Below are positions 11,774 through 43,576 of a stretch of 56,734 bases of DNA, in pieces. The notes under the pieces are model-generated. The model worked only from the letters and a program-made list of their open reading frames with translations. It made no database searches and was not told the DNA's origin. The DNA is from an uncultured Bacteroidia bacterium (lineage in GTDB: Bacteria; Bacteroidota; Bacteroidia; Bacteroidales; Prolixibacteraceae). The translations under genes and the position numbers were made by a program. Position 1 is the first letter of the stretch, and each line of letters opens with the position of its first letter. The stretch spans positions 1 to 56,734 of the forward strand of contig CAIYPA010000360.1 of the NCBI GenBank assembly GCA_903927965.1, written 5' to 3'.

Positions 11774-11798
11774 ATTCAGGATTTTATAGTATTAATCA

Positions 11799-12026
11799 TT
11801 ATTCAACCTTTACCCGGTAAACAGTAATACAACTATCGGGGCAAACTGCGGAACAATTTGTACAACCATTACAGTTCTCGGGATTTTCCATATAGGAATA
11901 GTGATACCCTTTGCTGTTCACATCGCGGTTTAGTGCCAAAGTACGTGATGGACAAGCAACTACACAAAGGTTGCAACCCTTGCATACTTCGTTGTCCACA
12001 ACTACTGCTCCCCTCACTTTTGCCAT
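11799..12026 (-). CDS. 2x[4Fe-4S] ferredoxin, delta subunit of 2-oxoacid oxidoreductase
   Basis: 75 residues with two clusters of Cys: CKGCNLCVVACP and CNGCTNCSAVCP. It should pass electrons from the TPP site of the beta subunit to an external carrier; a flavodoxin gene is two genes upstream. First gene of the four-subunit unit. Confidence 0.93.
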   Translation of the reverse strand: MAKVRGAVVVDNEVCKGCNLCVVACPSRTLALNRDVNSKGYHYSYMENPENCNGCTNCSAVCPDSCITVYRVKVE

Positions 12027-12082
12027 ATTGATTTCGAATTTATTTGGTTTCTATTCTTGTTTGATTGCTTAAAAAGTGGCTG

Positions 12083-12090
12083 CAAAAGTA
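12083..12090 (-). promoter_or_regulatory. Candidate minus-7 element for the oxidoreductase operon
   Basis: TACTTTTG on the minus strand fits TAnnTTTG and sits in the 80-bp gap after the aminotransferase, 57 bp before the ferredoxin start. No clear TTTG minus-33 box was found, so the call is tentative. Confidence 0.4.
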
Positions 12091-12106
12091 GTACGATCAG
12101 TTTGGT

Positions 12107-17219: not shown

Positions 17220-17253
17220 TTTTCATCCTCCATTTGTTATACGATGTCAGAAA

Positions 17254-18573: not shown

Positions 18574-18591
18574 GTGAAATACTTATTGATG

Positions 18592-19923: not shown

Positions 19924-19929
19924 AGCTAT

Positions 19930-24412: not shown

Positions 24413-24428
24413 ACAAATATAAATTGGT

Positions 24429-25769: not shown

Positions 25770-25771
25770 GG

Positions 25772-27022: not shown

Positions 27023-27028
27023 ATTCTT

Positions 27029-28495: not shown

Positions 28496-28505
28496 AGTTA
28501 AAAGT

Positions 28506-30635
28506 TTAACCAAGTGTCAATACAATGCTTTGACCACGTTGTATTTTTGCCCCGGATTTTATTGATTGTGATTTAACCTTCCCACGTCCTTTTACAGATA
28601 CCCTCAAACCATTGGTTTCGAGCAAATAGACTGCGTCGGTGGCACCCATCCCCTTCACATTGGGTACGATTCCTTTTTGGATTTCCCTGTTATTTAGCTC
28701 AAGCCCGTCTTCGTCGGGTTTTGCTTCGACCCAGTCGGATTTTGTAAAAGCAAATCCGTTCAGGATATCCAGCTCGTCCAAAACATTGGCGATGTCTTTT
28801 TTTCTTCCAGCTGCAATCCCAGGAATGTCATTGTCGATTTTGGTTTCGGGCAATTTAATTTCTTCATTAAGACCTAATTCATAGGCATATACATAATCGG
28901 ATATTTTTCTGAATACAGGACCGGCAACCGAAGCGCCATAATAGTCTCCACCTTTTGGCGAATTGATCACCACGATACATGAATATTTTGGATGGTCGGC
29001 AGGAAAATACCCAGCAAAAGAGGACTGGTAAATTGTCTTCCCACCATGGCTATACCCCTCTTTATTGTTGGCTACCTGCGCCGTGCCAGTTTTTCCTGCA
29101 ATTTTATAGGCTTTGGTTTCCAATGCCTTAGCGGTCCCATTGGTGACAACACCTTCCAACATGGCCCTGGCCTTACGGATTGTTTTTGCCGAGCAGATCG
29201 ACCAGATGAGTTTCTTTGTACCGATCTTTTCGCGGAAAGTCCCATTTTCCGTGATCCCTTTAACGAGCCGGGGTTTCATCATTGTACCCCCGTTGGCAAC
29301 TGCGTTATAAAATGTAAGTGTTTGAAGTGGTGTCAATTTTAATGCATAACCATAAGATAGGGATGCCAACGACACACCCGACCAGATTTTATCTCCTGGC
29401 CTGGTAATGTAAGGCATCGCTTCTCCCTGAATACCAATATCAAGCTTCTCAAGGATACCCAGTTTGGTGATGCGGTCAATAAAATCGCCCTCATCGTCCG
29501 AATAACTTTGTGTGATCAGTTTGGCCAGGCCAATATTTGACGACAATTCAAAAGCGTGTTTTGCCGTAATTTTACCATGGCCACCTTTCTCATGGTCACT
29601 ATCGGTGATGATTTTGTCCTTGTATTTCCAGGATCCATTCCCGGTATCGACAATTGTTGAAGTATCTACCTTGCCATCTTCCAATGCTGCCATCAAAGAA
29701 ACCAGTTTAAAGGTCGATCCTGGTTCGGAACAGCCGGCATTCCCAATTGCATAATTTTGATATCCACCGATCAATTGACCGGTATGATTCCTGCCAAAAT
29801 TTGCAATTGCTTTAATATCACCGGTTTCCACTTCCATCAGGATTGCAGTGCCGTATTCGGCACTGTATTTCTCCATTTGAAGCTTTAATGAGTAGGTAAC
29901 CTGGTCCTGCATTTTGATGTCAAGGGTGGTGATGACATTCTTGCCATCCTGGGGATCGTCCTTGCTGATGATGAACCATCGGCCCGACATATTTTGTTTC
30001 ACGGCCATTCCATCCTCACCTTTTAGTTCTTTCTCGAACGATTGTTCAAGACCGAAGGCTCCGGCATTTCCCGAGGGACCTTCACCCGTTTTGGTAAGTT
30101 TTCCCAGAGTTCTGACTGCCAGGTTACCCGATGGGTAAACCCTTTCATTTTCCTGCTCTGTGATCAAACCCCCACTGTTCCTTCCTCTTCTGAGGATTGG
30201 GAATTTCTTGATGACCTGCAATTCCGCATAGGAGACTTTTCGGGGGGTAATCAGGAAATAATGTTTTTGTTGTGCAAAGGCCCTGTTGAGTTCTGCCCTG
30301 TAGGCAGATGCCGATTTGTCGCGCAGGAACCTTGAAAGGCAGAGCGCTAGCGAATCAACATCGTGATAAAAACTTTTGGCAAGACCGGGAGCCCCCAGGT
30401 CCATGTGAAGTTCATAATATGGGATTGAAGTAGCCAGGGGACTACCATCCGCAGCACAGATATCGCCCCGCCTTGCTTCGATTGCAAACTCCTTGATCTC
30501 AAGTTTTTGGGCTTCCTTGTCCCATCTTGGCATATGCTGGACAATCACCACGCGGACGAGGATATAGATGGTTGTTATAGCAATGAAGATATAAACACCC
30601 AAAAAACGAAACGATATGTCATTTCTAATATCCAT
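28506..30635 (-). CDS. ftsI: Septal class B penicillin-binding protein (FtsI/PBP3) with PASTA domain
   Basis: 709 residues. Membrane helix at ~11-32, dimerisation domain ~50-220, transpeptidase ~250-580 with SxxK (S307-T-F-K310), SxN (S365-S-N367) and KTG (K515-T-G517). Residues ~650-709 form one PASTA domain (VPNVKGMGATDAVYLLETNG). It cross-links septal peptidoglycan with FtsW. The PASTA domain is common on Bacteroidota FtsI. Ends 10 bp before the murE ATG. Confidence 0.95.
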   Translation of the reverse strand: MDIRNDISFRFLGVYIFIAITTIYILVRVVIVQHMPRWDKEAQKLEIKEFAIEARRGDICAADGSPLATSIPYYELHMDLGAPGLAKSFYHDVDSLALCLSRFLRDKSASAYRAELNRAFAQQKHYFLITPRKVSYAELQVIKKFPILRRGRNSGGLITEQENERVYPSGNLAVRTLGKLTKTGEGPSGNAGAFGLEQSFEKELKGEDGMAVKQNMSGRWFIISKDDPQDGKNVITTLDIKMQDQVTYSLKLQMEKYSAEYGTAILMEVETGDIKAIANFGRNHTGQLIGGYQNYAIGNAGCSEPGSTFKLVSLMAALEDGKVDTSTIVDTGNGSWKYKDKIITDSDHEKGGHGKITAKHAFELSSNIGLAKLITQSYSDDEGDFIDRITKLGILEKLDIGIQGEAMPYITRPGDKIWSGVSLASLSYGYALKLTPLQTLTFYNAVANGGTMMKPRLVKGITENGTFREKIGTKKLIWSICSAKTIRKARAMLEGVVTNGTAKALETKAYKIAGKTGTAQVANNKEGYSHGGKTIYQSSFAGYFPADHPKYSCIVVINSPKGGDYYGASVAGPVFRKISDYVYAYELGLNEEIKLPETKIDNDIPGIAAGRKKDIANVLDELDILNGFAFTKSDWVEAKPDEDGLELNNREIQKGIVPNVKGMGATDAVYLLETNGLRVSVKGRGKVKSQSIKSGAKIQRGQSIVLTLG

Positions 30636-30637
30636 AG

Positions 30638-30979
30638 TTACTCCTTGTCAACGTAGATTTTCCTTGGTGGCTCTTTCGATATCTCAAGGTCCAGTCCACT
30701 ATTTTTAACACGTTCAAGAATCACCGAATGACGTCCAAGCCTCTGTACTTCAGCGGCAACTGCAATTGAATTTGAACGCAATTCGATCAGGCTATCCTCA
30801 AGTGCCGTCATTTCACGTATCACCTTTTCCGACTTGTATCTTACTGATATACTGGATAAAGCCATAATAAAGAACATCAGTAAAAGCATCCTGTTGCTCC
30901 TGAACCACTCACTGTCCATGAAGGTGCCATTGAGCAGGCTTTTAAATGAGAACTTTTTTTTTCGTTTGCTTTCCATCAT
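30638..30979 (-). CDS. ftsL: FtsL-like cell division protein
   Basis: 113 residues. A basic N-terminus (ESKRKKKFSFK), one membrane helix (residues ~31-46, LLLMFFIMALSSISV) and a heptad-like periplasmic segment fit FtsL. Sequence identity in FtsL is always low, so the dcw position (ATGA overlap with rsmH, 2 bp before ftsI) carries much of the call. Confidence 0.85.
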   Translation of the reverse strand: MMESKRKKKFSFKSLLNGTFMDSEWFRSNRMLLLMFFIMALSSISVRYKSEKVIREMTALEDSLIELRSNSIAVAAEVQRLGRHSVILERVKNSGLDLEISKEPPRKIYVDKE

Positions 30980-31878
30980 TTTCTTTTTTCGGCGATCCTC
31001 AATTTTGCACTTCTTGCCCTGGGGTTTTTGGCTATCTCCTTTTCGTCGGGAATGATGATTTTCCGGTTCACCAACTCAAACGGCGAGTTGCTGTTGCCGA
31101 AAAAGTCCTGCTCCAATGCACCGTCAACCCTTCCCGAACGCATAAAATTTTTCACAAGCCTGTCTTCGAGCGAATGGTACGACAGCACAACCAATCTCCC
31201 ACCTGGCTTTAAAAGATCTGTCGTGCTTTCGAGGAAATCGCTCAAAACGCCCATCTCATTGTTTACTTCGATCCGCAAAGCCTGAAAGACCATTGCGAGA
31301 TATTTTTTTTCAATCTTTTCTGGTACACAAGATGAGATCACCTTTAAAAACTGGTTTGTCGATGTTATCTGGGCCTCTGCCCTGGCACCCGTAATGGTTG
31401 AAACGAGGTGCCGCCAGTTCTTCAATTCACCGTATTCACGAAAAATCTTCCACAACTGCATTTCGGGGTAAGTGTTGACAACCTTGGCAGCATCCAAATC
31501 CGATGATTGGTTCATGCGCATGTCAAGATTACCATCGAAACGGAACGAGAAGCCACGGTCGGGGACATCAAAATCGTGGGAGGAGACCCCCAAATCTGCA
31601 AGGATCCCGTCAACCTGGTCAATCTGGTAATAGCGCAAAAAATTGCGGAGGTATTTAAAATTGTGCCTTACAAATGTCAAACGATCATCAACAACCACAT
31701 TTTCAGCAGCATCTATATCTTGGTCGAATGCAATCAACCGGCCACCTTCGAGTTTTTCAAGGATTTTTGCAGAATGTCCGCCCCCGCCATAGGTCACATC
31801 AACGTAAACACCGTTGGGCTGAATGTTCAGCCCTTCAATACTTTCCTCAAGTAAAACCGGTATATGGTATTCGTTCAT
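30976..31878 (-). CDS. rsmH: 16S rRNA (cytosine1402-N4)-methyltransferase
   Basis: 300 residues. YVDVTYGGGGHSAKIL (SAM-binding), GILADLGVSSHDFDVPDRGFSF and LVVLSYHSLEDRLVKNF are RsmH/MraW signatures. It methylates C1402 of 16S rRNA. Overlaps ftsL by ATGA. Confidence 0.96.
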   Translation of the reverse strand: MNEYHIPVLLEESIEGLNIQPNGVYVDVTYGGGGHSAKILEKLEGGRLIAFDQDIDAAENVVVDDRLTFVRHNFKYLRNFLRYYQIDQVDGILADLGVSSHDFDVPDRGFSFRFDGNLDMRMNQSSDLDAAKVVNTYPEMQLWKIFREYGELKNWRHLVSTITGARAEAQITSTNQFLKVISSCVPEKIEKKYLAMVFQALRIEVNNEMGVLSDFLESTTDLLKPGGRLVVLSYHSLEDRLVKNFMRSGRVDGALEQDFFGNSNSPFELVNRKIIIPDEKEIAKNPRARSAKLRIAEKRK

Positions 31879-32633: not shown

Positions 32634-33476
32634 ATGGAAAACGAAAAAAATGTCTCTCTTATCAAAGAGATTGATTTAAAGGAACTTGTCATTGAAAAGA
32701 ACCCAAAACTTGCAAGAAGGATACCCAGATTAGTTTATGGCCTTTTGAACAGGTTACTTCATATCAGGGAGGTTAACGAGATTATCCGAAAGTACGGCCA
32801 TCTTAAAGGGGTTCCGTTTATTGAGGCAGTATTGCACCACTTTGATGTGAAGGTGGAGCATTTCGGAGAGGAAAATTTCCCTGCTTCAGGAAGGTTTATC
32901 TTCGCGTCGAACCATCCTTTGGGTGGTTTCGATGGGTTGATGCTGATCAAAGTGGTGAGCGACCGTATGGGAAAATCCTTGTTCCTGGTGCGCGATGAGC
33001 TTACGAAAATTCCTACGCTTACCGAATTGTTTATCCCGATCAATAAATTTGGGGACCAACGCCGCTCTGCAGGCGTGATCAATGAGGCCTATCACTCAGA
33101 AAGCCAAATCCTTATTTTTCCATCGGGGTTGGCTTCACGAAAAATTAAGGGGAAGATCGTCGATCTGGCATGGCAGAAGCATTTTATCCAGAAATCGGTG
33201 GAACACCACAGGGATGTTGTTCCGGTTTTTATCAGCGGTCGCAATTCCAGGTTTTTTTACTGGCTTGCCAATTTCAGAAAGATGATCGGCATAAAGCTGA
33301 ATATCGAGATGTTCCTTTTGCCGGATGAACTGTTCAAAAACAAGGGGAAGACCTTTGTGATCAATTTTGGGAAACAAATACCTTGGGATAGTTTTGATCG
33401 GAGCAGGTCACAGACGGAATGGGCAGAGAGTGTAAAGAGCATCGTTTATCAGATTTCGGATCAGTCGAAGAAATGA
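32634..33476 (+). CDS. glsA: PlsC-like O-acyltransferase, glycine-lipid GlsA-like
   Basis: 280 residues. The catalytic motif FASNHPLGGFDGLMLIK (residues ~90-106) is of the lyso-lipid O-acyltransferase class with His and Asp in an NHPLGG(F/L)D setting; FPSGLASRKIKG is the third acyltransferase motif. Together with the GNAT-type gene that follows, it matches the glsA/glsB pair that makes N-acyl-O-acyl glycine lipids in Bacteroides. Gene symbol is by pattern and context. Confidence 0.78.
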   Translation: MENEKNVSLIKEIDLKELVIEKNPKLARRIPRLVYGLLNRLLHIREVNEIIRKYGHLKGVPFIEAVLHHFDVKVEHFGEENFPASGRFIFASNHPLGGFDGLMLIKVVSDRMGKSLFLVRDELTKIPTLTELFIPINKFGDQRRSAGVINEAYHSESQILIFPSGLASRKIKGKIVDLAWQKHFIQKSVEHHRDVVPVFISGRNSRFFYWLANFRKMIGIKLNIEMFLLPDELFKNKGKTFVINFGKQIPWDSFDRSRSQTEWAESVKSIVYQISDQSKK

Positions 33477-33540
33477 TTCCTGATCCTTTAAGAAGGAAAT
33501 TTCTCAAAGTCATTTCAACTTTTCAAGGATAGTCTGGTGC

Positions 33541-33757
33541 GGCTTGCAACTGGCGGCTGGCAGCTTCCATACTTAAATTGAATTCATTCCCTAAGAGCCG
33601 ATGATTTCTTATACTGCTGATATTGAAAATCCTAATTGATTTTTGATACACTGTTTGAATACCCAATTCTTTATCCGACGACAGCCAGCTGCCAATTGCC
33701 AGCAGCCAATATTCACCAAATAGACAGCCAGTCGCCAGCCGCCAGCGGCCAGTTGCC
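33541..33757. repeat. Low-complexity GCCAGTTGCCAGC tracts
   Basis: Two blocks: GGCTTGCAACTGGCGGCTGG at 33541-33560, and a longer run of CCAGCTGCCAATTGCCAGC- and GCCAGCCGCCAGCGGCC-type units at 33681-33757. Another block lies at 34872-34910 just after the following gene, so the glsB-like gene is bracketed by this repeat. Confidence 0.65.
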
Positions 33758-33806
33758 TTTCCATAAATAAATTTCCACCCCAAACAGCATAGAGATTAAA
33801 AAATGT

Positions 33807-33814
33807 TATTTTTG
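33807..33814 (+). promoter_or_regulatory. Candidate minus-7 element for glsB
   Basis: TATTTTTG fits TAnnTTTG, 25 bp before the ATG. No good minus-33 partner. Confidence 0.35.
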
Positions 33815-33839
33815 AAGCAACAATTCAAGAGTTTGAAAA

Positions 33840-34811
33840 ATGAAGGAAATTATTCCTCCCGTGGCAAGGGAGCTACTAGAAGCAGAACTGACTGCTGGCA
33901 AATTCCAACGGAAAACAAACAAAGCCGATAACGAGATCTATATCCTCTCCCACCACGATTCTCCCAATCTCATGCTTGAAATCGGGCGGTTACGTGAGCT
34001 GACTTTTCGCTCTGCTGGTGGTGGTATTGGAGAAGAAATAGATATCGACAAATATGATACTTCTGAAGAAAATTATTACAATCAATTGATTGTATGGGAT
34101 CCAAGTCGCCGTGAAATTTTGGGAGGTTACCGGTATATCCATTGTGCGGGTATCCCACGCGATGAGACCGGCGAAGTTCCTTTGGCCACCTCACATCTTT
34201 TCCATTTTTCAGACCAGTTTATCGATGATTACCTTCCCTATGTTATTGAGCTTGGACGATCGTTTGTTCAACCCGATTACCAGTCAAGTAAGGCAGGTGC
34301 CAAAGCGCTTTTCGCGCTCGACAACCTGTGGGACGGACTTGGCGCACTTGTGATCGATCATCCCGATATCAAATATTTCTTTGGGAAAGTGACTATGTAC
34401 ACACAGTACAACCAGCATGCCCGCAACCTGATCCTCTATTTTTTTGAAAAATACTTTCCAGATCCCGACAAGTTGGTGAGGCCAAAAAAACCAATGCCCT
34501 ATTCTGCCGATTTTGCCCACCTCGAAGAGCTGTTTTCAGGAAAAGGTTACGACGAAGCCTATAAGATACTCTCCGCCGAGGTCCGGAGCTTTGGTGAGAA
34601 CATTCCTCCGTTAATCAATGCCTATATGAGCCTCACACCTACGATGAAAACGTTTGGGACAGTGATCAGCGATGAATTCGGGGATGTGGAAGAGACGGGG
34701 ATCCTTCTCAGCATTGATGATATGTACGATACCAAAATCGACAGGCATATCTCGACTTATCTTGAAGAACTTGCTGATAAACAGGATAATCCAAAGGTAA
34801 GATTTCAATAA
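33840..34811 (+). CDS. glsB: GNAT-type N-acyltransferase, glycine-lipid GlsB-like
   Basis: 323 residues. RELTFRSAGGGIGEEIDIDKYD, LIVWDPSRREILGGYRYIHC and YVIELGRSFVQPDYQ are motifs of the OlsB-like (hemolysin/acetyltransferase) family. In Bacteroides the homologue attaches a 3-hydroxy fatty acid to glycine, and GlsA then adds the second chain. The 363-bp gap with repeats suggests separate transcription from glsA. Ornithine or another amino acid substrate is the alternative. Confidence 0.78.
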   Translation: MKEIIPPVARELLEAELTAGKFQRKTNKADNEIYILSHHDSPNLMLEIGRLRELTFRSAGGGIGEEIDIDKYDTSEENYYNQLIVWDPSRREILGGYRYIHCAGIPRDETGEVPLATSHLFHFSDQFIDDYLPYVIELGRSFVQPDYQSSKAGAKALFALDNLWDGLGALVIDHPDIKYFFGKVTMYTQYNQHARNLILYFFEKYFPDPDKLVRPKKPMPYSADFAHLEELFSGKGYDEAYKILSAEVRSFGENIPPLINAYMSLTPTMKTFGTVISDEFGDVEETGILLSIDDMYDTKIDRHISTYLEELADKQDNPKVRFQ

Positions 34812-34943: not shown

Positions 34944-36770
34944 TTACGGGTGCAAATGTGTTAAATCCCCATTATCCAACCACATTCTTAATTTTATTTC
35001 CTCCTCCGTTTTCCTCCGCATTTCAACATCCGGTTTCAGTGTTTTTAAAACATTGGTTTTATAACTACGGGTAAAATCGAAAATCCGTTTGGGATAATAA
35101 ATAAACACCTCCCAATTGTTTTTCAGGTTATGACGGTACTTCATTTTCGATGGCGATATAAGAATATATTTCAAGACGAATACCAGTTTTTGTAAATGGC
35201 TGATCTGATTTAAGGTGGCAATAGGACCATTTAAATTTACATCACGGAAATACAGAATTCTATTCAGTGCTGCTTCTTTTATCTCCTGGCTAAGTTCAAT
35301 ATTAAGGGACTTAAAAAATTGATCGGGGATGTTTGCCCCTACTGTATTTTTCGCCAGCCATCCGACCAATGCAAACCGATGGACAAAATTGGTCTCTACT
35401 ATTTTATTTGCTATCACCTCCCAATTAATATCCTTTTGGTATTTTTTTGTAATTACCAAGATATCCATTAAGTTTTTTAAAGAAGGTAGTAATCCATCAT
35501 TTAAACCAATATGGAGCATGATTTGAAACACGAGTGCAGTGGGCTTGAATACAAGGGCAATGCCTTTCCCAAATTGCTTACCTTCGGTTTCACCGATCAG
35601 CCATGCCATTGTTTTCTTTGTCCCTGAAGTTTGAAACATTGGTTGAAGTAATGTCCAATGAAGTTCTATGCTTTTTTTACCTTTTTTGGTAAACGGAGGC
35701 AAATGCCGGTTGTATTTTTTTAAATTTTCTATCGTAAAGTAGTCGCTGCTATAACCAGCCTCAACCAATAACCCTAAAACTTTGAGTATATCTTCCTCTT
35801 TAACCATAATATCGATATCTCCCATGGGCCTTAACGAAGGAGAAGGGTAAACATGAAAAGCCAGGTGCGACCCTTTCAGGAATATGAATGATATCCCATT
35901 TGTTTCGAATAGAATGGAAAGCTCGTCCAATTCATGCAGGTGTTTAAGGTTGCCAACTGAGTAATGCATCAATTGAATCCTGATTTTTCGTTGCCAATCT
36001 ACGGGAATAACATCTTCAGATTTTTTTTGTTTGATCGCGTAATAAAGGTAGCCTACAATACCCTGTTGCTGTGCCAATTCGAACGAGTTATTCCAGGCTT
36101 CCGGGGTAAGAACAGGAATTATCGGGTTTTCGCTGTCCAATATGCGGGAGATGTATTGCAGGTTTTCTTTCCCCGCGTCCGTGAACACTTTGTTGGAAAG
36201 CAGTAGTGACTTTTCGTCAACAAAAATCCGCCATGGACGAAATATAATCCAACGTTTCCAGCGGACATCGTACCTGCCAGCAAGAATTTTCCCAATAAAC
36301 AAATGGGCATGACCATTCTGATATTTGTTTATTTTAGGTTTATATCTCTTGGGCAATAATTTGATAAATAACCCTGAACCGGATATCAAATGATACACAA
36401 AAGATAACAACCTACGGAAAAATTTAAAAAATATTTTTCTGATTTGAAGATATCGATGCAACAATTGCCCGATTTTGCCCCCGCTCACCCTATAATGTTT
36501 TTCGCCCCGGTAGGCCGCAACAACTTTACCCTGAATATCCTTTTGAACAATGGGCTCGTCATCTGTAAGATTGTTGTCGCCACGTGTCGTGAAGCCAAAC
36601 CTGGTATGTTTAACAATCCGATGCACAATGGTTTTCTGGTTTCCATCGATAAACACAACAACATCGCCGATATGATAAGAATCAGCAGGTTCTATTTCCA
36701 AAATCATAGGTTCGCACAAGGTTGGGTCCATGCTATTGCCCACCATGGAATAGATCTTCTCCTGCCTCAT
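34944..36770 (-). CDS. S26-type peptidase fused to NTP_transf_5 nucleotidyltransferase (RiPP cassette)
   Basis: 608 residues. N-terminal ~90 residues: MVGNSMDPTL (Ser13), GDVVVF, TIVHRIVKH (His50) and TTRGDNNLTDD (Asp65, Asp70/71), a signal-peptidase layout with His in place of the usual Lys. No clear membrane anchor precedes it. Residues ~220-560 match the uncharacterised nucleotidyltransferase family: FIFLKGSHLAFHVYPSPSLR then PMGDIDIMV with metal-binding D318 and D320. It follows the ScmF-like gene by 1 bp. I infer leader cleavage by the first domain and nucleotidyl or sugar-phosphate addition by the second. Confidence 0.82.
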   Translation of the reverse strand: MRQEKIYSMVGNSMDPTLCEPMILEIEPADSYHIGDVVVFIDGNQKTIVHRIVKHTRFGFTTRGDNNLTDDEPIVQKDIQGKVVAAYRGEKHYRVSGGKIGQLLHRYLQIRKIFFKFFRRLLSFVYHLISGSGLFIKLLPKRYKPKINKYQNGHAHLFIGKILAGRYDVRWKRWIIFRPWRIFVDEKSLLLSNKVFTDAGKENLQYISRILDSENPIIPVLTPEAWNNSFELAQQQGIVGYLYYAIKQKKSEDVIPVDWQRKIRIQLMHYSVGNLKHLHELDELSILFETNGISFIFLKGSHLAFHVYPSPSLRPMGDIDIMVKEEDILKVLGLLVEAGYSSDYFTIENLKKYNRHLPPFTKKGKKSIELHWTLLQPMFQTSGTKKTMAWLIGETEGKQFGKGIALVFKPTALVFQIMLHIGLNDGLLPSLKNLMDILVITKKYQKDINWEVIANKIVETNFVHRFALVGWLAKNTVGANIPDQFFKSLNIELSQEIKEAALNRILYFRDVNLNGPIATLNQISHLQKLVFVLKYILISPSKMKYRHNLKNNWEVFIYYPKRIFDFTRSYKTNVLKTLKPDVEMRRKTEEEIKLRMWLDNGDLTHLHP

Positions 36771-36771
36771 G

Positions 36772-37827
36772 CTAAATTAGTCTTGTTGCCGGGAATAAAC
36801 CCTCTTCCTCAGCCTTTTCACAAAACCAGAATGGGGCGGTCAAATCCTGACTCCGGTAATAGTTTTGGGCCACGCATGAGCCAAAGCATTTTGATTTCAA
36901 CAGGCACCGCGAACAAATTCCTTTCATTTTCAAAGGGATATCCTCCCTGATTTTCAAAAGAACAGGATGTTCGTTCCAAATTGTTTCAAGTGGATCTTTA
37001 CCTGCTTCACCAAAGACCAACTCGGGAATTTGCTCACCTATCCCGCAAAGCGCATATTTCCCGGTCGCCAAAACACCCAAAATATTTTTGATGCCACAAG
37101 CTCCCCAATTTTTACTGAGCTTGCTCAAAGGCCTGAAAGCTACAGGATAGTCGAAATACAAATGGAGTTCAGTGGTCTTCTGCAGTTCAAATTCAACCCT
37201 TTTTCCAATTTTGATCAACTCCTTCAGGCTCAGTGTTTCATCCTGGCCATGAAGCACCTCTCCCCGCGCAGTAGGTTGGATGATGTTGAATTTTATAGAT
37301 TTTGCGCCAAGTCGTTCACCATAACCGATTATTTTGGATAGTTCGGCAACATTGTGGCGCATCAGCGAGAAAATAATCTGTGGGCGTAAACCTGCCTCGG
37401 CCAGATAGCCAACAGCATTACATGCAGCGACAAAAGATCCTTTAACGCCCCGAACCCATTCGTGGGTTTCGGCAGTGGCACCATCCATACTGACCGATAT
37501 CGATACCTTTTCGTGACCGGCAATTTTGGCAACAAGTTCTTTTGTACAAAGCATCCCATTGGTTTCGATGTTGAGGCGAAGGTTTTTCTCTTTAATGAGA
37601 TCCAAAATTGTCTCAATTTCAGGATGTAACAGTGGTTCGCCTCCTGTTAGTTTAACTGCCTCTAAACCCAAAGGCAGCGCTTCTTTCAGAATTTTCCGCA
37701 AAAGGGAAAGATCAAGAACCGGATATTTAATGCCCAAGGCATCATATTTTGGAGCCAGCCAGCAATGGCGGCAAGACAGGTTGCAACCTTCGGTGAGGTA
37801 GAGGTATAACTGTGTCAATGAAGCCAT
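36772..37827 (-). CDS. scmF: Radical SAM/SPASM peptide maturase, ScmF-like
   Basis: 351 residues. The start LYLYLTEGCNLSCRHCWLAP holds the CxxxCxxC cluster (C15, C19, C22); KLTGGEP and VSISVSMDGATAETHE are further rSAM motifs. The C-terminal half has a SPASM-like Cys set (ACGIKN, YALCGIG, CSRCLLKSKCFGSC, FWFCEKA) for extra 4Fe-4S clusters. The sequence fits the ScmF family of the SynChlorMet cassette (Haft and Basu naming), as recalled. Likely installs a thioether or C-C crosslink on the small peptides encoded just upstream. Confidence 0.85.
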   Translation of the reverse strand: MASLTQLYLYLTEGCNLSCRHCWLAPKYDALGIKYPVLDLSLLRKILKEALPLGLEAVKLTGGEPLLHPEIETILDLIKEKNLRLNIETNGMLCTKELVAKIAGHEKVSISVSMDGATAETHEWVRGVKGSFVAACNAVGYLAEAGLRPQIIFSLMRHNVAELSKIIGYGERLGAKSIKFNIIQPTARGEVLHGQDETLSLKELIKIGKRVEFELQKTTELHLYFDYPVAFRPLSKLSKNWGACGIKNILGVLATGKYALCGIGEQIPELVFGEAGKDPLETIWNEHPVLLKIREDIPLKMKGICSRCLLKSKCFGSCVAQNYYRSQDLTAPFWFCEKAEEEGLFPATRLI

Positions 37828-38014
37828 TTGATCAATTGATTCACGTTTTAGAAAATATTTGAACAGACCTGATTATTCCTTGGGAAAACTATTTAATTCA
37901 AACCTATGCATTGGCACATAAAAACAAAAGAACCCTATGATAACGTCAAATAGATATTTTTTTGATTTTCAATCGAATAAATGAATTTATGCGTTTGAAA
38001 TAAGCCAATAATAA

Positions 38015-38182
38015 CTAAAAATTTCCACCATTATAACAGGAAGTTAAATCACTGGACCCACTGACACAACCAGGTGGAGTGCCCATTGCCTCTCCAATGC
38101 CATTCAAATCAACCAATTTGGGAATTTGATATACTTTGTCTACTGTTTGTTCAGAAAGAATCCTGTTGTCCTTGTTTTCCAT
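38015..38182 (-). CDS. scmA: RiPP precursor peptide 1 (ScmA-like)
   Basis: 55 residues from the ATG at 38182; an upstream in-frame start 10 codons earlier is not shared by the paralogues. Leader MENKDNRILSEQTVDKV then YQIPKLVDLNGIGEAMG; core TPPGCVSGSSDLTSCYNGGN. Two Cys are 9 residues apart (CVSGSSDLTSC), as in precursor 3. Ser, Thr and Tyr in the core give sites for the cluster's kinase and sulfotransferase. Closest to scmF (187 bp). Confidence 0.8.
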   Translation of the reverse strand: MENKDNRILSEQTVDKVYQIPKLVDLNGIGEAMGTPPGCVSGSSDLTSCYNGGNF

Positions 38183-38213
38183 AATACGATGATTTAATTT
38201 AATATAATACAAA

Positions 38214-38221
38214 CAAAAATA
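38214..38221 (-). promoter_or_regulatory. Candidate minus-7 element before precursor 1
   Basis: TATTTTTG on the minus strand, 31 bp upstream of the precursor-1 ATG. Fits TAnnTTTG; minus-33 not clear. Confidence 0.3.
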
Positions 38222-38255
38222 TTTTTCAAATTGGTAAGATATATGCCAATTTTAA

Positions 38256-38426
38256 CTAAATCTCTGCACTCCCACCTGTTCCACACGCAAAAGCACCTGA
38301 TCCAGGATTACAATTATATGGAGCGCACTAAGCCCCATCAATGGTGTTAAGATCAACCAGTTCAGGAATTTGATATTCTTTGCCATCTTTTTGATCAGAA
38401 GAAACCAAGTTGTCGTGGTTTTCCAT
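38256..38426 (-). pseudogene. scmA: RiPP precursor peptide 2 with in-frame TAG (broken or recoded)
   Basis: From the ATG at 38426 it reads MENHDNLVSSDQKDGKE then YQIPELVDLNTIDGA, then TAG (38330-38328, codon 33), then CAPYNCNPGSGAFACGTGGS and AEI to a second TAG. The core downstream of the stop stays open, in frame, and keeps Cys/Gly/Ser content. Aligned sisters have ATG (precursor 1) and TTG (precursor 3) at the TAG position, so one T-to-A change from TTG explains it. It yields leader only unless suppressed. Absent from simple ORF calls because of the stop. Confidence 0.8.
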
Positions 38427-38486
38427 AATTCATTGTTATAATTTGAAGTAAAGTAAACTGACCTTACAGAAACACAAATTACTTAA

Positions 38487-38648
38487 TCATAATGCAAAAC
38501 CAGTTATACATTTAGAATCAGCACTTGATCCACTGGTACAGATTAATTCTCCCAATGCCGCACCAATACTGTTCAGATCCACCAATTCGGGAATTTGATA
38601 TTCTTTGTCCACTGTTTCGTCACAAAGAATCATGTTGTTGTTTTTCAT
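38487..38648 (-). CDS. scmA: RiPP precursor peptide 3 (ScmA-like)
   Basis: 53 residues: leader MKNNNMILCDETVDKE then YQIPELVDLNSIGAALG, core ELICTSGSSADSKCITGFAL. Cys spacing CTSGSSADSKC matches precursor 1. It is the first of the three after scmC (57-bp gap). The 22 bp before each ATG of precursors 2 and 3 are nearly the same (TTCAAATTATAAC...ATT), supporting tandem duplication. Confidence 0.82.
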   Translation of the reverse strand: MKNNNMILCDETVDKEYQIPELVDLNSIGAALGELICTSGSSADSKCITGFAL

Positions 38649-38670
38649 AATACGAGGTTATAATTTGAAC

Positions 38671-38678
38671 CAAATATA
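38671..38678 (-). promoter_or_regulatory. Candidate promoter element for the precursor peptides
   Basis: TATATTTG, a perfect TAnnTTTG, on the minus strand 22 bp before the precursor-3 ATG in the short gap after scmC. It would give the peptide genes a separate, stronger transcript. No convincing minus-33 box. Confidence 0.42.
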
Positions 38679-38705
38679 GTTAAAAAAAAATCAAATGAAG
38701 ATTTT

Positions 38706-39644
38706 TTACAAACTTTTTTCAATCAGTTCATAAAAATTGCCTGTAAGTGATAAATTTAATCTATTACAAGGCAGTTGTTTGCTCATAAAAATTGCATTTT
38801 CAAACCAATGCATCCTGATTTTTCGGCTATCCATTTGATCCGGATCGTTTCCAATGGCAAACCAATCTTTTGGTTTTCTTATGGGCTTTTCTTCTTCCGG
38901 TCTTTTGGTATTTATTTTGTCTTTGTTTATTTCGTTTCGTGCCAGCATACGAGATGCCTGTTCAAAAGCCGCAACGCAGCACGATACCTTTTCTCCGGGT
39001 GTTAAAAAAGAAATCGTATCGGTTTCGGATTGCGACAAATAGAAGATCGACCCAAGTGGTACTACATCGTCGAATTTCCAGGATCCACCTTCGCCGCCCC
39101 AATAGAAACGGCTCCAGGTAGGATACGGATGTGCCCAAAAGTTGCCTTCTTTGTCTTTTACGACCAAGGTCGTGTCGTCGCAATGGGAAATGAATGGAGA
39201 TGGCAGCCGGCCACTGGCAGTGCTTTTACCTGTACCACCTGGGGCAGCCATCAAAAAACCTTTGCCATCGAGCTCGCCCAGGGCGGCATGAATCAATCCC
39301 CCACCCGAGAGCATCGCAACAGTTCCCAACAGGTTTGCAAACATCATCAACATGCAGGCATAATCATCGGGATCTTCGATCATGAAATTATAGGGTATTT
39401 CGATGTTTTGTTCACGGATCAACTCGAAATGATGGCGGGTCAAGTTATAATAATTAACGCTATCTGGTTGATGTTTAAACGTAATAGTGTATCTTACAGC
39501 AAGATCCGATTTCGGATACTCACCCAGTGAAAATATTTTCCGGTAATCGTTCAAAACGTGCAATACCTGATCGTCGCCCTGAAACAGGACTTCAACACTG
39601 TTCTTTAATCGAAACGATATCTTATGCAACAATGGTTGTGTCAT
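38706..39644 (-). CDS. scmC: HPr-kinase-like ATPase, ScmC-like
   Basis: 312 residues from the ATG at 39644, which overlaps the sulfotransferase stop as ATGA; a start 8 codons earlier is less likely. Walker A APGGTGKST (134-142) and HCDDTT (154-159) resemble HPr kinase/phosphorylase P-loop and acidic motifs. It fits ScmC of the SynChlorMet cassette, as recalled. Related kinases in lasso-peptide clusters phosphorylate a Ser of the precursor, so peptide phosphorylation is a reasonable inference. Confidence 0.82.
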   Translation of the reverse strand: MTQPLLHKISFRLKNSVEVLFQGDDQVLHVLNDYRKIFSLGEYPKSDLAVRYTITFKHQPDSVNYYNLTRHHFELIREQNIEIPYNFMIEDPDDYACMLMMFANLLGTVAMLSGGGLIHAALGELDGKGFLMAAPGGTGKSTASGRLPSPFISHCDDTTLVVKDKEGNFWAHPYPTWSRFYWGGEGGSWKFDDVVPLGSIFYLSQSETDTISFLTPGEKVSCCVAAFEQASRMLARNEINKDKINTKRPEEEKPIRKPKDWFAIGNDPDQMDSRKIRMHWFENAIFMSKQLPCNRLNLSLTGNFYELIEKSL

Positions 39645-40591
39645 ATTTTTTTTGAAATTGAATCCCACAATTCTTTACAATGCAGGTTATAGTCTTGGGC
39701 AATCAAATCGTGACCCACCATTTTCAGCGCGTCCACCTGATAGATTGCCTTGTTTGAATGAACTCTATCCGCTAACAGTTCTGTTTCAGAAATACCTGCA
39801 AAGTCTGCAATGGTACCAAGTTTTTTAGAAATCTCATTGGTTCGGATATAACAATACCTTTCGGGAGACAGTTTTTCGGTTTGGCTTAAAATCGCGCGAT
39901 AACCATTCGCCCAGCTTTTAAACATGACTTCGATGTATTCATCAATGTGCAGAAGGAATTTATCCCTCGAAACTTGGTCGCCACGGGGCAGATCGAATGG
40001 AAAACCATTGTCGAGCTGGCCCGATTGCATTGCTTCCTTAGTAATGTCCATAAAATGATTGATCTGAGATTTGACCCATGATTGAGGATCCCGGATCAGG
40101 CAGATAAATTTGGCATCGGCAAACTCCTCCGATAAAATGTCGATATAATACCGGTTAAAGTATGCAGAATCCATTTCCAGTAATGCTGCGGCATCCCTTA
40201 AAATCAAAAAATTACGGAATTCATGCCTGCTTATTGCCTGTTCCTTAAGTTGGATGTATTTTTGATTGGTATCCCATTGCCAGAACTCATGGCCTGAACG
40301 GAATTTTCCAAATAAGGCAGAAAGCGAAACCGTCCCCGTTTTGGGCAGTCCAAGTGCATACAATCTAAAACGACGTTGTGCACCATTGAGCTTTAAAAAA
40401 TTGAAATAGTCGATGGCATTTTTAAAAGTAAACGCTTTTGCTATCGCAGCAAGATCTGCATTTGGGATACGGATAACATCTGTATCCTCGAATTCTTTTA
40501 GCACATCGTTCTTTATTCCGGATTTTTCCGAAACTGCTTCTAAACTTAAGCCGTCCCTGAGCCGAAGGTACCAAATGTATTTACCGATCAT
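39641..40591 (-). CDS. Sulfotransferase-like protein with N-terminal HTH domain
   Basis: 316 residues from the ATG at 40591, chosen because it gives an ATGA overlap with the radical SAM gene. Residues ~5-52 (WYLRLRDGLSLEAVSEKSGI) look like an XRE-type helix-turn-helix. Residues ~76-316 look like a PAPS-dependent sulfotransferase: LGLPKTGTVSL (80-90; 5'-phosphosulfate loop) and FICLIRDPQSWVKS (162-175; 3'-phosphate loop with Arg and Ser). It is coupled at both ends to RiPP maturation genes, which suggests sulfation of the peptide. The HTH part may bind the leader or DNA. Confidence 0.75.
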   Translation of the reverse strand: MIGKYIWYLRLRDGLSLEAVSEKSGIKNDVLKEFEDTDVIRIPNADLAAIAKAFTFKNAIDYFNFLKLNGAQRRFRLYALGLPKTGTVSLSALFGKFRSGHEFWQWDTNQKYIQLKEQAISRHEFRNFLILRDAAALLEMDSAYFNRYYIDILSEEFADAKFICLIRDPQSWVKSQINHFMDITKEAMQSGQLDNGFPFDLPRGDQVSRDKFLLHIDEYIEVMFKSWANGYRAILSQTEKLSPERYCYIRTNEISKKLGTIADFAGISETELLADRVHSNKAIYQVDALKMVGHDLIAQDYNLHCKELWDSISKKI

Positions 40592-41685
40592 AGGGCCGAA
40601 GATTGTTGTAAGAAGTTCCGATAACAAGCATCCGGGCTAGGGTGGTTTACCTTTTGCGTAAGGTTATATGCCAGTCCCGGGCAATTGCCGGTACAATAAT
40701 CTGTAAAATCACAATTATTACAAAACTCAATGCCTGCAAGTTCAATTTTTTCCCGCTGTCGAAGTTGGTTAAGTTCCGCGCTATTTTGCCATATGTCGAT
40801 GATTTTATCTTTATTGATAAAACCTAAGTTGATATTTGGGAGCATGGTGCAAGGTGAAATTCCACCATCACAATGTATAGAAAGCTTGTTGTTATAACAG
40901 CCACAGGCCATTAAATGGCCTCCTTTTGCGAAAGCCGGTGCGTTTTCATCAAAAGCCCTTTGCATTTTCGCAAAATATTTTGCTTCGGCAAGGGGGCCAG
41001 CAGCAGCAGTGATCCTACCGTTGTATTTTTGATTGAGGTCAACCAGTATGTTCATCGCCTTTATCCGGTCGGCATGGGTCAGCATGATTTCGTCAGCATT
41101 TTTACGGCAATTGCCCAAATAACCCGCCGAATTGGTGCTAAACGATTTAAGGCCAAGGTCTTCAAGCAATAATTTGGCCGCATTCCCCAGATCATCCACA
41201 TTAAAATGATGAATTGTATATCTTACAGGTGTATTTATGCCATATTTTTTTAAAATCTCCAGTCCCCTTATCGCCCCGGCAAATGAACCTTTTCCCCTGC
41301 CTACATCATGAATCTCTGCGCAGGAACCATCCAACGATATCTGAACAGAATCGCATCTGCCAGTTTTTTTGATATAAGCCGCGATATCATCAGTGATTAA
41401 CCCGCCATTCGACAAAAATGCGAACCTCATCCTGTTTTTAACGATCGAATCGATCAATTCTTTTAAATCGTTCCGAAAGAATGGTTCCCCACCCGCCAAA
41501 GTGACTTTCATAACACCAATGGAACCCAATTCGTCGAAAAACCTGGTCCACTCCTGGGTCGTGAGGTCGATGTAGTCGAGGTTCTCATTTTCGAAGAAAT
41601 AGCAATACTTGCACCTTAGGTTGCATTTTGCCGTCAATTCGATATCCAATTCACGGGGCATACGCATGATTCTCTTCCCGGACAT
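40588..41685 (-). CDS. scmE: Radical SAM/SPASM peptide maturase, ScmE-like
   Basis: 365 residues. MPRELDIELTAKCNLRCKYC carries the CxxxCxxC cluster (C21, C25, C28), then VTLAGGEPFFRNDLKELID and SVQISLDGS. The C-terminal SPASM region holds many Cys (ACGCYNN, SIHCDGGISPCTML, FCNNCDFTDYCTGNC). The pattern, including WTRFFDELGSIGVMKVTLAG, agrees closely with ScmE as I recall it. It follows scmD with 1 bp between stop and start. Confidence 0.87.
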   Translation of the reverse strand: MSGKRIMRMPRELDIELTAKCNLRCKYCYFFENENLDYIDLTTQEWTRFFDELGSIGVMKVTLAGGEPFFRNDLKELIDSIVKNRMRFAFLSNGGLITDDIAAYIKKTGRCDSVQISLDGSCAEIHDVGRGKGSFAGAIRGLEILKKYGINTPVRYTIHHFNVDDLGNAAKLLLEDLGLKSFSTNSAGYLGNCRKNADEIMLTHADRIKAMNILVDLNQKYNGRITAAAGPLAEAKYFAKMQRAFDENAPAFAKGGHLMACGCYNNKLSIHCDGGISPCTMLPNINLGFINKDKIIDIWQNSAELNQLRQREKIELAGIEFCNNCDFTDYCTGNCPGLAYNLTQKVNHPSPDACYRNFLQQSSAL

Positions 41686-41686
41686 A

Positions 41687-41965
41687 TTACAGGGTTGAGC
41701 TAATTCCTATTAATCCCCGCTTTGCAAGCTTTTCAATAAATTCAAAAATTTCTGTCTCCACACTTTCAGAAACATTGCGGTATTCCTGTTTAATCTCTCC
41801 AACAATTTCACCGATACTTTTTGAGCCATCCAACCTTTTCCAGATGTCCACGCCAATTGGATTTGCGCCCACTGCCTCGGCATTATCCGGATTGTACAAT
41901 ACGGCCCAATCATCAAATTCCTCCCGCAATACAATCACCGGATTACGCGTATAAATTTCATTCAT
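41687..41965 (-). CDS. scmD: PqqD-family leader-binding protein, ScmD-like
   Basis: 92 residues from the ATG at 41965; the open frame runs further upstream but without PqqD similarity. RNPVIVLREEFDDWAVLYNP, NPIGVDIWKRLDGSKSIGEI and a C-terminal helix (EIFEFIEKLAKRGLI) give the winged-helix PqqD fold. PqqD proteins bind RiPP leader peptides and present them to radical SAM enzymes. First gene of the cassette. Confidence 0.88.
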   Translation of the reverse strand: MNEIYTRNPVIVLREEFDDWAVLYNPDNAEAVGANPIGVDIWKRLDGSKSIGEIVGEIKQEYRNVSESVETEIFEFIEKLAKRGLIGISSTL

Positions 41966-42775
41966 AATTTTGTCAGTTTTAAATCTTTTCAAGACAAAAA
42001 TAATTAAAAAATAATTCATGAAGAAGATGCTATGCAATTGCAGCTTGAAAGGTTTTGCAGTCACTTCTTTTTCGCACCACTGGAAACTCCTAGCCTGAAT
42101 AATCAAATTTTGGAATGCGCCACAAAGTTTTTAAATTGCATGATGATTTCTATCAAACTTGCAAGCAGCCAATCACTTAGAACCTGTCATTGCGCAGAGT
42201 GCGACATCAAGTCCAAATTTGAAAGATGAACATTTGCACTCCAAAGCAATCCCATACTAAGAAGCACTATCCCAAAAACAATGTTCTGGACGGTGCTTCA
42301 ATCATGAGATTGCTTCACCAAACAGGCTGAACCTGCTAACGACTTAGTATACTGACGTTTGGTTCGCAATGACCGTTCCAGGAGGAAGATCGTCCTAATA
42401 AAAATTGTACCCATCATTTTGTTTTACTCCATCCAGTTCCGCATGAAGAAAGATTTGCACTTTTCTGGACCTTCGATCGCGGACGGCTTTCGTGTTGTCA
42501 TTTTCCCCAGCGAAGTGACAGAAGAAGGATTTCGAAATACCTATAAGATATTGAAATTAAACAGACGTATTCTTATCATCGTTACAAACGACGAACCATC
42601 AACCCCTCGTTACAAACGAGGGGGATTGTTGGAAACCCAGATGAACCTTTAGCACAATCAATACTAAAGGAGTGGAATATTGGTAGAAAAACCCACCACC
42701 AACACTTAGGTGCAATCAGCAGGTTGTGTATAGGATGAATGATCAATGCGCTGCACAAACAAGGCAAAGAGACGA
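41966..42775. other. 810-bp non-coding gap upstream of the RiPP cassette
   Basis: No convincing gene. It holds fragments of interspersed repeats (GAGATTGCTTC and TTCGCAATGACC at about 42307-42374; ATCGCGGACGG at 42476-42486, like part of the ~170-bp element) and a CTCGTTACAAACGAG inverted repeat (42606-42620). The open frame at 42359-42652 has no recognisable domain. Confidence 0.55.
41995..42002 (-). promoter_or_regulatory. Candidate minus-7 element for the RiPP cassette
   Basis: TATTTTTG on the minus strand, 29 bp before the scmD ATG. Confidence 0.38.
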
Positions 42776-43576
42776 TTAATGAACCAGGACACGATCTTCA
42801 ATAGCCCCATTCCTCAATAATGTGTTTCTGTTAATCGTTAATTTTTGTCCGTGCTTTCTTTTGTATAAAATTGTCAGAACAATTGCAAGTGCTATTGTCA
42901 ATCCCCTGAATATGTTAGAGTTGATGTTACCCAATGCGTTGTCGCTAACATTGAATAAATTCCATGATAAGTTCATGAATGTATGCAGAAAAATAGGGAC
43001 CCATAAATTATAGTCCCATTCAACGAAAAGCCATGCAAAAAATATTGCGCCCATGAATGTTGTCAAAAAAATACCTGTCATCGTTGAAAAGTCCTGACTT
43101 TGATATAGGTGCGCCGATGCAAATACCAACGCTCCAACAATGATTGACGGTATAAATCCAAGTTTTGTGGTCCTGAAAATTTGGCCAAATAAGAATCCCC
43201 TGAAATAAAGTTCCTCAAAAAGCCCGGCGAAAATAGTACCTGCAATCAGGTTCGGGATTGTTATATTAGAATTGAAAGGATAAAAAATAAATCCACCTAT
43301 AAACATTGGAACAACGAATATTAAAGCAAGAATAAGTCCAGACAAAATGCTTTTGGATAGTCCAAGATGATCAAATATTTTAGAACTGTTATGAATAAAG
43401 TATGTTCCCAAAAATATCGGAACGCCCATGATGACATAGGTAATAAAATAACTTAAAAGCCTGTAATTGAATAGTCTGTCGATAACTTGCATTATTTCCT
43501 TAAAATATTCCATTGCCATATAATACACCAAAAAGCAAATTAACGTAATGATTGTATTTCGTATAGTCTTATTCAT
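42776..43576 (-). CDS. CPBP-family intramembrane metalloprotease
   Basis: 266 residues with about eight membrane helices. GLFEELYFRGFLFG (motif EExxxR: E121, E122, R126), VFASAHLY (FxxxH: F152, H156) and HTFMN (HxxxN: H198, N202) are the conserved Abi/CAAX protease-like motifs. Homologues cleave membrane substrates, or serve bacteriocin immunity or peptide maturation. It lies 810 bp upstream of the RiPP cassette on the same strand, so a role there is possible but not shown. Confidence 0.85.
   Translation of the reverse strand: MNKTIRNTIITLICFLVYYMAMEYFKEIMQVIDRLFNYRLLSYFITYVIMGVPIFLGTYFIHNSSKIFDHLGLSKSILSGLILALIFVVPMFIGGFIFYPFNSNITIPNLIAGTIFAGLFEELYFRGFLFGQIFRTTKLGFIPSIIVGALVFASAHLYQSQDFSTMTGIFLTTFMGAIFFAWLFVEWDYNLWVPIFLHTFMNLSWNLFNVSDNALGNINSNIFRGLTIALAIVLTILYKRKHGQKLTINRNTLLRNGAIEDRVLVH

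What the first reader, a model, noticed from the sequence alone, without database searches (positions are those of the whole stretch)
34944..41965. SynChlorMet-like RiPP cassette with an expanded set of modifying enzymes
One strand, tightly coupled genes (ATGA overlaps, 1-bp gaps) for PqqD-like, ScmE-like rSAM, sulfotransferase, ScmC-like kinase, three short precursors, ScmF-like rSAM and a peptidase/nucleotidyltransferase. Seen: the motifs and the gene order. Known: the SynChlorMet cassette described by Haft and Basu includes ScmA, ScmC, ScmD, ScmE and ScmF. Inferred: the extra enzymes create a more heavily decorated product. No ABC exporter is next to it, so export is unexplained.
Basis: partly seen in the sequence, partly recalled or inferred. 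Interest (0 to 1): 0.88.

Follow-up and report, generated by a model that had tools for sequence, protein, structure and literature searches.

The report
SynChlorMet peptide cassette with added sulfotransferase
This is a rare Bacteroidota version of a known peptide-modifying gene cassette: almost all of its genes are usual for the family, but it has gained a sulfotransferase-like gene that a sister species has deleted, and it lacks the exporter gene that usually sits nearby.

Summary
The cassette is real. NCBIfam SynChlorMet models: ScmE, ScmF and ScmC over cut-off, ScmD 98.8 against 100 bits. The ScmA model does not hit the precursors, but they share leader and C-x-x-G core with precursors beside cassettes of other phyla. 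Of the 'three precursors' two are intact; the middle one has an in-frame TAG just before its core. 'Expanded set of modifying enzymes' is mostly wrong: signal-peptidase-like and nucleotidyltransferase parts lie near 28 and 20 of 39 ScmE loci, many on short contigs. The one addition is the sulfotransferase. It recurs in the same order in a second Bacteroidota genome; a sister species keeps only its two ends, about 894 bp being missing. The window genome's one close homologue of the second cassette's exporter lies in a lasso-peptide cluster on another contig. Best reading: Cys-containing peptides altered by two radical SAM enzymes, then, by inference, phosphorylated, glycosylated and sulfated. 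Against sulfation: no APS kinase was found in the second genome.

The parts
41687..41965 (-). ScmD: PqqD-like leader-binding protein
   Evidence: TIGR04248 98.8 bits (cut-off 100), PF05402 54.4 bits (cut-off 23.4)
40588..41685 (-). ScmE: radical SAM/SPASM maturase
   Evidence: TIGR04250 482.4 bits (cut-off 400)
39641..40591 (-). Sulfotransferase-like protein with an extra N-terminal stretch of about 70 residues; the one gene not usual for the cassette
   Evidence: PF17784 37.8 bits and PF13469 29.2 bits, both over cut-off; 70% identical protein at the same place in L060; remnant in G015/L059
38706..39644 (-). ScmC: HPr-kinase/PEPCK-fold kinase-like protein
   Evidence: TIGR04249 152.8 bits (cut-off 125); four best PDB sequence matches of its profile are HPr kinases; AlphaFold model pLDDT 85.3 matches PEPCK structures
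38487..38648 (-). Precursor 1 (ScmA-like), intact, 53 aa, two C-x-x-G units
   Evidence: no NCBIfam hit
38328..38426 (-). Precursor 2 (ScmA-like): leader present, in-frame TAG directly before the core; core-like codons follow in the same frame
   Evidence: (63.4 bits, 1 TAG inside)
38015..38182 (-). Precursor 3 (ScmA-like), intact, 55 aa, two C-x-x-G units
   Evidence: no ScmA-model hit
36772..37827 (-). ScmF: radical SAM/SPASM maturase
   Evidence: TIGR04251 494.2 bits (cut-off 400)
34944..36770 (-). Fusion of a signal-peptidase-I/S26-like domain (about the first 90 aa, Ser-His pair) and an NTP_transf_5 domain (residues 224-476)
   Evidence: TIGR02228 50.1 bits (cut-off 51.85), PF14907 151.5 bits; S-M and H-R motifs kept in 29 of 29 related domains
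41995..42002 (-). TAnnTTTG box upstream of scmD (promoter-like element of Bacteroidota; consensus recalled, weak evidence)
38671..38678 (-). TAnnTTTG box upstream of precursor 1 (weak evidence)
38214..38221 (-). TAnnTTTG box upstream of precursor 3 (weak evidence)

Best explanation
A SynChlorMet-type RiPP cassette of a Bacteroidota subtype. The ScmA-like precursors carry a leader (E-Y-Q-x-P-E-L-V-D-L-N like) that the PqqD-like ScmD would bind, and a minimal core C-x-x-G-S-x(n)-C-x-x-G. ScmE and ScmF, radical SAM/SPASM enzymes, would act on the two Cys-x-x-G units, most likely making thioethers from the Cys (inferred). ScmC, of the HPr-kinase/PEPCK fold, would phosphorylate a core Ser/Thr, and the NTP_transf_5 domain would add sugar to that phosphate, as reviewed for the lasso peptide pseudomycoidin (inferred by homology). 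The signal-peptidase-like domain, with a Ser-His pair, would remove the leader (inferred). The extra sulfotransferase would sulfate a Ser/Thr or the added sugar; Tyr is unlikely as the general target, since 7 of 9 aligned precursors have no Tyr from the first core Cys onward. The gene most simply entered before the three Bacteroidota cassettes diverged and was deleted in one species, so it is an optional decoration. Export in the window species would be done in trans by the ABC exporter orthologue sitting in a lasso cluster, or by an unidentified exporter. Shown: gene identities, order, homology, the deletion remnant, the exporter's location. Inferred: every chemical step and the shared export.
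For: HMM scores. 39 ScmE-equivalog loci with, within 10 kb, ScmD 36, ScmF 37, ScmC 31, peptidase-like 28, ABC 24, NTP 20 of 39. ScmA-like ORFs at 25 of 39 loci against 1 of 40 control loci; Bacteroidota precursors match those of other phyla, profile probability 94.9%. ScmC: HPr kinases are its profile's four best PDB sequence matches, PEPCK structures the 50 listed fold matches, invariant H119, G139-K140, D156-D157 in 25 proteins. Ser/His pair in 29 of 29. Sulfotransferase: family scores, 18 PDB matches of the wider family profile, mostly sulfotransferases, same place in L060, remnant in G015. One APS kinase in the window genome. Lasso parallels: PMC8498205, PMC7533575, PMC4289311 (passages). 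Exporter.
Against: No APS kinase found in G542, the second genome with the sulfotransferase, by two models, so PAPS supply is unexplained there. ScmA model not hit, ScmD slightly under cut-off, peptidase models sub-threshold. 14 of 39 loci gave no ScmA-like ORF under the rule used. The lasso-located exporter overlaps a lasso cyclase-like gene by 4 nt and presumably serves the lasso peptide first. One precursor is interrupted. No product is known to me. The sulfotransferase structure prediction was of low confidence (pLDDT 41.3).
Confidence: 0.6

Rival explanations
1. Same cassette, but the sulfotransferase-fold protein does not transfer sulfate: it uses another donor or does another reaction, or its extra N-terminal stretch makes it a leader-binding or regulatory protein.
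For: G542 has the gene (70% identical) but no detectable APS kinase. The N-terminal stretch is missing from the distant relatives found: all seven other hits begin at query residue 58 to 72. Weak HTH_25 match, 17.5 bits under the 24.6 cut-off; weak match to an O-methyl phosphoramidate transferase model, 20.5 bits against 600.
Against: P-K/T-K-T-G-T and R-D-P-x-S-W-V-K-S stretches, which look like PAPS-binding motifs (recalled), are kept between the two copies; passes two Pfam sulfotransferase cut-offs; the window genome has an APS kinase.
Confidence: 0.25
2. A decaying cassette: the exporter is lost from the site, one of three precursors is broken and the sulfotransferase is dispensable, so the window copy may make little or no product.
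For: TAG in precursor 2; no ABC gene in the window; sulfotransferase deleted in the sister species.
Against: The enzyme genes are open and score like relatives; two precursors are intact with conserved core residues; between window and G015 the proteins keep 89% (ScmE), 88% (ScmF), 85% (ScmC) and 68% (peptidase/NTP) identity.
Confidence: 0.12
3. The Cys-x-x-G precursors are not cross-linked; the two radical SAM enzymes alter residues in another way and the Cys serve in metal or disulfide binding.
For: SPASM enzymes catalyse several reactions (established knowledge); no experiment on ScmE or ScmF was seen in the searches made.
Against: Conservation of the core Cys, invariant at several positions in both precursor groups, with Gly three residues on mostly kept, fits thioether-forming precursors (inference).
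Confidence: 0.3

Closest known systems
SynChlorMet cassette (NCBIfam TIGR04248-TIGR04252; described by Haft and Basu, paper not held, recalled)
   Same: ScmD, ScmE, ScmC and ScmF homologues, precursors with a PqqD-type leader and C-x-x-G core, signal-peptidase-like and NTP_transf_5 parts nearby
   Different: Added sulfotransferase; no adjacent ABC exporter; cores with exactly two C-x-x-G units (3-9 at the other loci, one spurious hit set aside); peptidase and NTP fused (also at 3 of 39 loci, G015 among them); precursors not hit by the ScmA model
Cassette of Bacteroidetes bacterium Cfx3-03 (L060, genome G542)
   Same: Same gene order including the sulfotransferase; five precursors of the same type in the cassette
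   Different: Peptidase and NTP separate; ABC exporter begins 127 bp after NTP; a sixth precursor elsewhere in the genome
Phosphorylated or phosphoglycosylated lasso peptides (paeninodin, pseudomycoidin)
   Same: PqqD-like protein, HPr-kinase-like tailoring enzyme, nucleotidyltransferase; some lasso clusters have a sulfotransferase (PMC8498205, PMC4289311, passages)
   Different: No lasso cyclase or B2 protein in the cassette; radical SAM enzymes instead
Ranthipeptides and sactipeptides
   Same: Cys-containing cores matured by radical SAM/SPASM enzymes
   Different: ScmE and ScmF score far under the cut-offs of the PapB, StsB and AlbA models; cross-links not shown

Membership tests
SynChlorMet cassette | ScmE and ScmF radical SAM/SPASM equivalogs over cut-off | tested here: met
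   482.4/400 and 494.2/400 bits
SynChlorMet cassette | ScmC equivalog over cut-off | tested here: met
   152.8/125 bits
SynChlorMet cassette | ScmD equivalog over cut-off | tested here: inconclusive
   98.8/100 bits; L060 95.7/100
SynChlorMet cassette | ScmA precursor over the cut-off of TIGR04252 | tested here: not met
   No hit for 2 of 2 intact window precursors; of 8 precursors from other loci tried, 1 hit it, at 21.8/35 bits. Leader and core architecture shared by profile comparison
SynChlorMet cassette | Genes clustered in other genomes | tested here: met
   39 loci
Lasso peptide cluster | Asparagine-synthetase-like cyclase and B2 protein in the cassette | tested here: not met
   No such match among the eight window proteins of the cassette scanned; such genes are in a separate cluster on contig C91
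Sactipeptide or ranthipeptide | Radical SAM-made thioether from Cys | not testable with these tools
   Needs mass spectrometry
Sulfotransferase | Family score over cut-off | tested here: met
   PF17784 and PF13469 for the window protein; PF17784 alone for the L060 protein
PAPS-dependent sulfotransferase | Means to make PAPS (APS kinase) in the genomes that have the gene | tested here: inconclusive
   G000 has one; G542 none by PF01583 and TIGR00455, its completeness not given
HPr-kinase-like peptide kinase | HPrK/PEPCK fold with Walker A and acidic pair | tested here: met
   activity not tested

The most novel reading that the evidence does not exclude
In this genus two unrelated RiPP pathways, one built on radical SAM enzymes and one on lasso cyclases, share a single exporter, and both use a portable tailoring set of HPr-like kinase, nucleotidyltransferase and sulfotransferase, giving phospho-glyco-sulfated peptides of a kind I did not find described.
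Probability: 0.18. Interest if true: 0.75.

Novelty: new variant of a known kind. Interest (0 to 1): 0.5.

Why it matters
I found no experimental product of a SynChlorMet cassette in the searches made (one library of open-licence papers). The Bacteroidota subtype has the smallest cores I saw (two Cys-x-x-G units), which makes it a simple place to learn what ScmE, ScmF and ScmC do. The natural deletion of the sulfotransferase in a sister species gives a ready comparison for that gene. Kinase, nucleotidyltransferase and sulfotransferase genes recurring in a lasso cluster of the same genome suggest that such tailoring enzymes serve different RiPP classes.

Tried and rejected
Rejected: 'expanded enzyme set' (peptidase-like, kinase-like, NTP and exporter genes are usual). 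Rejected: the CAAX-like protease at 42776-43576 as a cassette part (no homologue at E 1e-4 in 45 locus entries, a set with some duplicates). Rejected: tyrosine sulfation as the general function. Tried without result: single-sequence match of the sulfotransferase or of ScmC to PDB (none); structure of the sulfotransferase from a two-row alignment (pLDDT 41.3, not used further); literature for SynChlorMet (none), for TIGR accessions and ScmE/ScmF (259 papers hold one of the six terms, the 15 listed are unrelated by title, the rest not seen), for radical SAM with sulfotransferase (five papers listed, one read in passages, none). A first PAPS-motif regex was too strict and missed even the known gene; the corrected one found only L060 in the 39 loci, as did phmmer with four sulfotransferase seeds; a sulfotransferase of another family near other cassettes could have been missed. 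A first signal-peptidase HMM was contaminated by ScmC and was rebuilt from 90 residues. The ABC count uses a loose threshold and includes weak or partial hits (for example L080 with 114 bits and L088 with 104 bits).
Full report
Observation. The minus strand from 41965 to 34944 holds ScmD, ScmE, a sulfotransferase-like gene, ScmC, three precursor genes, ScmF and a fused peptidase/NTP_transf_5 gene. NCBIfam scores: ScmE 482.4 (cut-off 400), ScmF 494.2 (400), ScmC 152.8 (125), ScmD 98.8 (100). Pfam gives PqqD, Radical_SAM, Sulfotransfer_4 and NTP_transf_5 over their cut-offs. The peptidase part matches signal peptidase I and S24 models just under cut-off. Chance is no explanation at these scores.

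Precursors. Precursors 1 and 3 are intact. Precursor 2 has an in-frame TAG at 38330-38328, after the leader and before the core; a core-like stretch follows in frame. Whether it is a dead gene, an assembly error or recoding is open. A profile of nine Bacteroidota precursors finds three places in the window genome (one with the TAG), two in its congener G015 and six in G542. The invariant residues of the nine (positions of row 1) are N4, T11, Y16, Q17, P19, L21, D23, L24, N25 in the leader and C36, G39, S40, C46, G49 in the core. The two intact window precursors do not hit the ScmA model; of eight precursors from other loci tried, one hit it, below cut-off.

The family elsewhere. A scan with an ScmE alignment gave 80 loci, of which I treat 39 (L059-L098 without L093) as ScmE equivalogs, by identity of 47% or more to the window protein. 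By record title and tree grouping they come from Bacteroidota, Chlorobiota, Thermodesulfobacteriota, Myxococcota, Nitrospirota, Verrucomicrobiota, Planctomycetota, Acidobacteriota, Chloroflexota, Methanobacteriota and others. Within 10 kb of ScmE, with many contigs short: ScmD 36, ScmF 37, ScmC 31, peptidase-like 28, ABC 24, NTP_transf_5 20, this sulfotransferase 1 of 39. In the 19 loci with at least 3 kb upstream and 6 kb downstream: ScmD 19, ScmF 19, ScmC 17, peptidase-like 16, ABC 16, NTP 13, sulfotransferase 1 (from the domain search; the ABC threshold was loose). The peptidase-like domain is fused to NTP at 3 loci and to ScmC at 4, which suggests that these parts work together. So these enzymes are ordinary members of the cassette.

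Precursor architecture. A rule of leader [YWF]xxPx(x)[LIVF] followed by at least two C-x-x-G finds candidates at 25 of 39 cassette loci and at 1 of 40 control loci. One of the 25 (L065, opposite strand) looks spurious; 14 loci gave none. Outside Bacteroidota the counts are 3 to 9 units (L065 set aside); the seven candidates of L059 and L060 have two, and so have the two intact window precursors. Profile comparison of the two groups gives 94.9% probability. The Bacteroidota type is a reduced core of the same kind.

The sulfotransferase. A second genome, Bacteroidetes bacterium Cfx3-03 (L060, G542), has ScmD, ScmE, sulfotransferase (70% identical), ScmC, five precursors, ScmF, peptidase, NTP and then an ABC exporter, in that order. 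The congener G015 (L052/L059) has ScmE followed by ScmC; between them lie the first seven codons and about the last ten codons of the sulfotransferase gene, the 894 window bases between the two aligned blocks being missing, and no other copy was found in its genome. In the ScmE tree the three Bacteroidota form one clade (100/100) on a long stem; window and G015 pair with 93/58, which is not strong. The simplest history is presence before their split and a deletion in G015. In a sample of 395 phylum genomes, the window's own included, seven others have distant matches (23-33% range of identity), all beginning at query residue 58 to 72, so the N-terminal stretch seems peculiar to the cassette form. 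Its predicted helices are of low confidence. The profile of the wider family matches mostly sulfotransferases in the PDB, the best being SgdX2.

PAPS supply. The window genome and G015 each have one APS kinase by PF01583 (the window's also by TIGR00455). G542, which has the sulfotransferase, has none by either model. This weakens a simple PAPS reading and I keep a rival for it.

Kinase and peptidase. ScmC has no Pfam match. A profile of 25 ScmC proteins has HPr kinases as its four best PDB matches (E 3.4e-4 to 4.6e-3). The AlphaFold model (pLDDT 85.3) matches PEPCK structures: all 50 rows listed of 94 matches at E 0.001 or better, best E 1.4e-6, with TM-scores below 0.5 by query length; no HPr kinase is among the 50 listed. 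PEPCK and HPr kinase share a fold (established knowledge). Invariant residues include H119, G139-K140 and D156-D157. The peptidase domain keeps S-M and H-R in 29 of 29 related domains, fitting a Ser-His signal peptidase.

Exporter. No ABC gene was found in the window. The exporter beside the L060 cassette has one close homologue in the window genome (contig C91, 68%, 894.8 bits; next 121 bits) and one in G015 (70%, 864 bits; next 131); in G542 the next best after itself is 157 bits, 26%. On C91 it lies in a lasso-peptide cluster: two asparagine-synthetase-like proteins (Pfam over cut-off; the lasso cyclase model, scanned for one of them, 163.8 against 525), a B2 protein over cut-off, a PqqD-like protein (lasso model 76.9 against 80), an HPr-kinase-like protein (sub-threshold, 23.4 against 33.3), a sulfotransferase of the PF00685 type, the ABC gene and an NTP_transf_5 gene, with an APS kinase gene nearby. 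In G015 the contig shows the same downstream neighbours and ends inside the ABC gene. These exporters are about 34-38% identical to the best-matching cassette exporters of other phyla. Export in trans is plausible but not shown.

Mechanism. By analogy with paeninodin and pseudomycoidin, where an HPr-kinase homologue phosphorylates a Ser and a nucleotidyltransferase adds hexose to the phosphate (PMC8498205, passages), I propose radical SAM modification of the Cys-x-x-G units, then phosphorylation, glycosylation and, where the gene is kept, sulfation, with leader removal by the peptidase and export. None of these steps is shown for this cassette.

Literature. Haft and Basu is not held and is recalled. 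The word SynChlorMet occurs in no held paper. PMC8498205, PMC7533575, PMC4289311 and PMC10352776 were seen as passages; PMC5300114 gave no matching passage. HPr kinase and sulfotransferase genes in lasso clusters are already reported.

Verdict. A confirmed SynChlorMet-type cassette of a rare Bacteroidota variant. Of 149 genomes searched, the window's own and relatives, only the window's and G015 have ScmE over cut-off.

Noticed in passing
L147 (contig C91 of the window's genome), 694-12706: Lasso-peptide cluster with HPr-kinase-like gene, sulfotransferase, two cyclase-like genes, ABC exporter and NTP_transf_5; the one APS kinase gene detected in the genome is close by.
   Followed up: partly
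window 38426-38256: Second precursor has a TAG between leader and core, and no TAnnTTTG box before it, unlike precursors 1 and 3.
   Followed up: partly
L175, near 7200-7400 (genome G542): Orphan sixth precursor of the same type, about 1 Mb from the cassette.
   Followed up: no
L091: A locus from a Deltaproteobacteria bin with six ScmA-like precursors and three ScmC copies.
   Followed up: no
window 42776-43576: CAAX-like (Rce1) membrane protease gene upstream of the cassette, not seen near other cassettes.
   Followed up: partly
window 15807-31878: Cell-division and cell-wall genes (MraW, a penicillin-binding protein, Mur ligases, FtsA, FtsZ) on one strand, as in a dcw cluster.
   Followed up: no
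window 32634-34811: Acyltransferase and glycine N-acyltransferase GlsB genes, as for glycine lipid synthesis, just beyond the cassette on the other strand.
   Followed up: no
window 1488-3671 and 51444-55295: Two long ORFs (727 and 1283 aa) without a Pfam match over cut-off.
   Followed up: no
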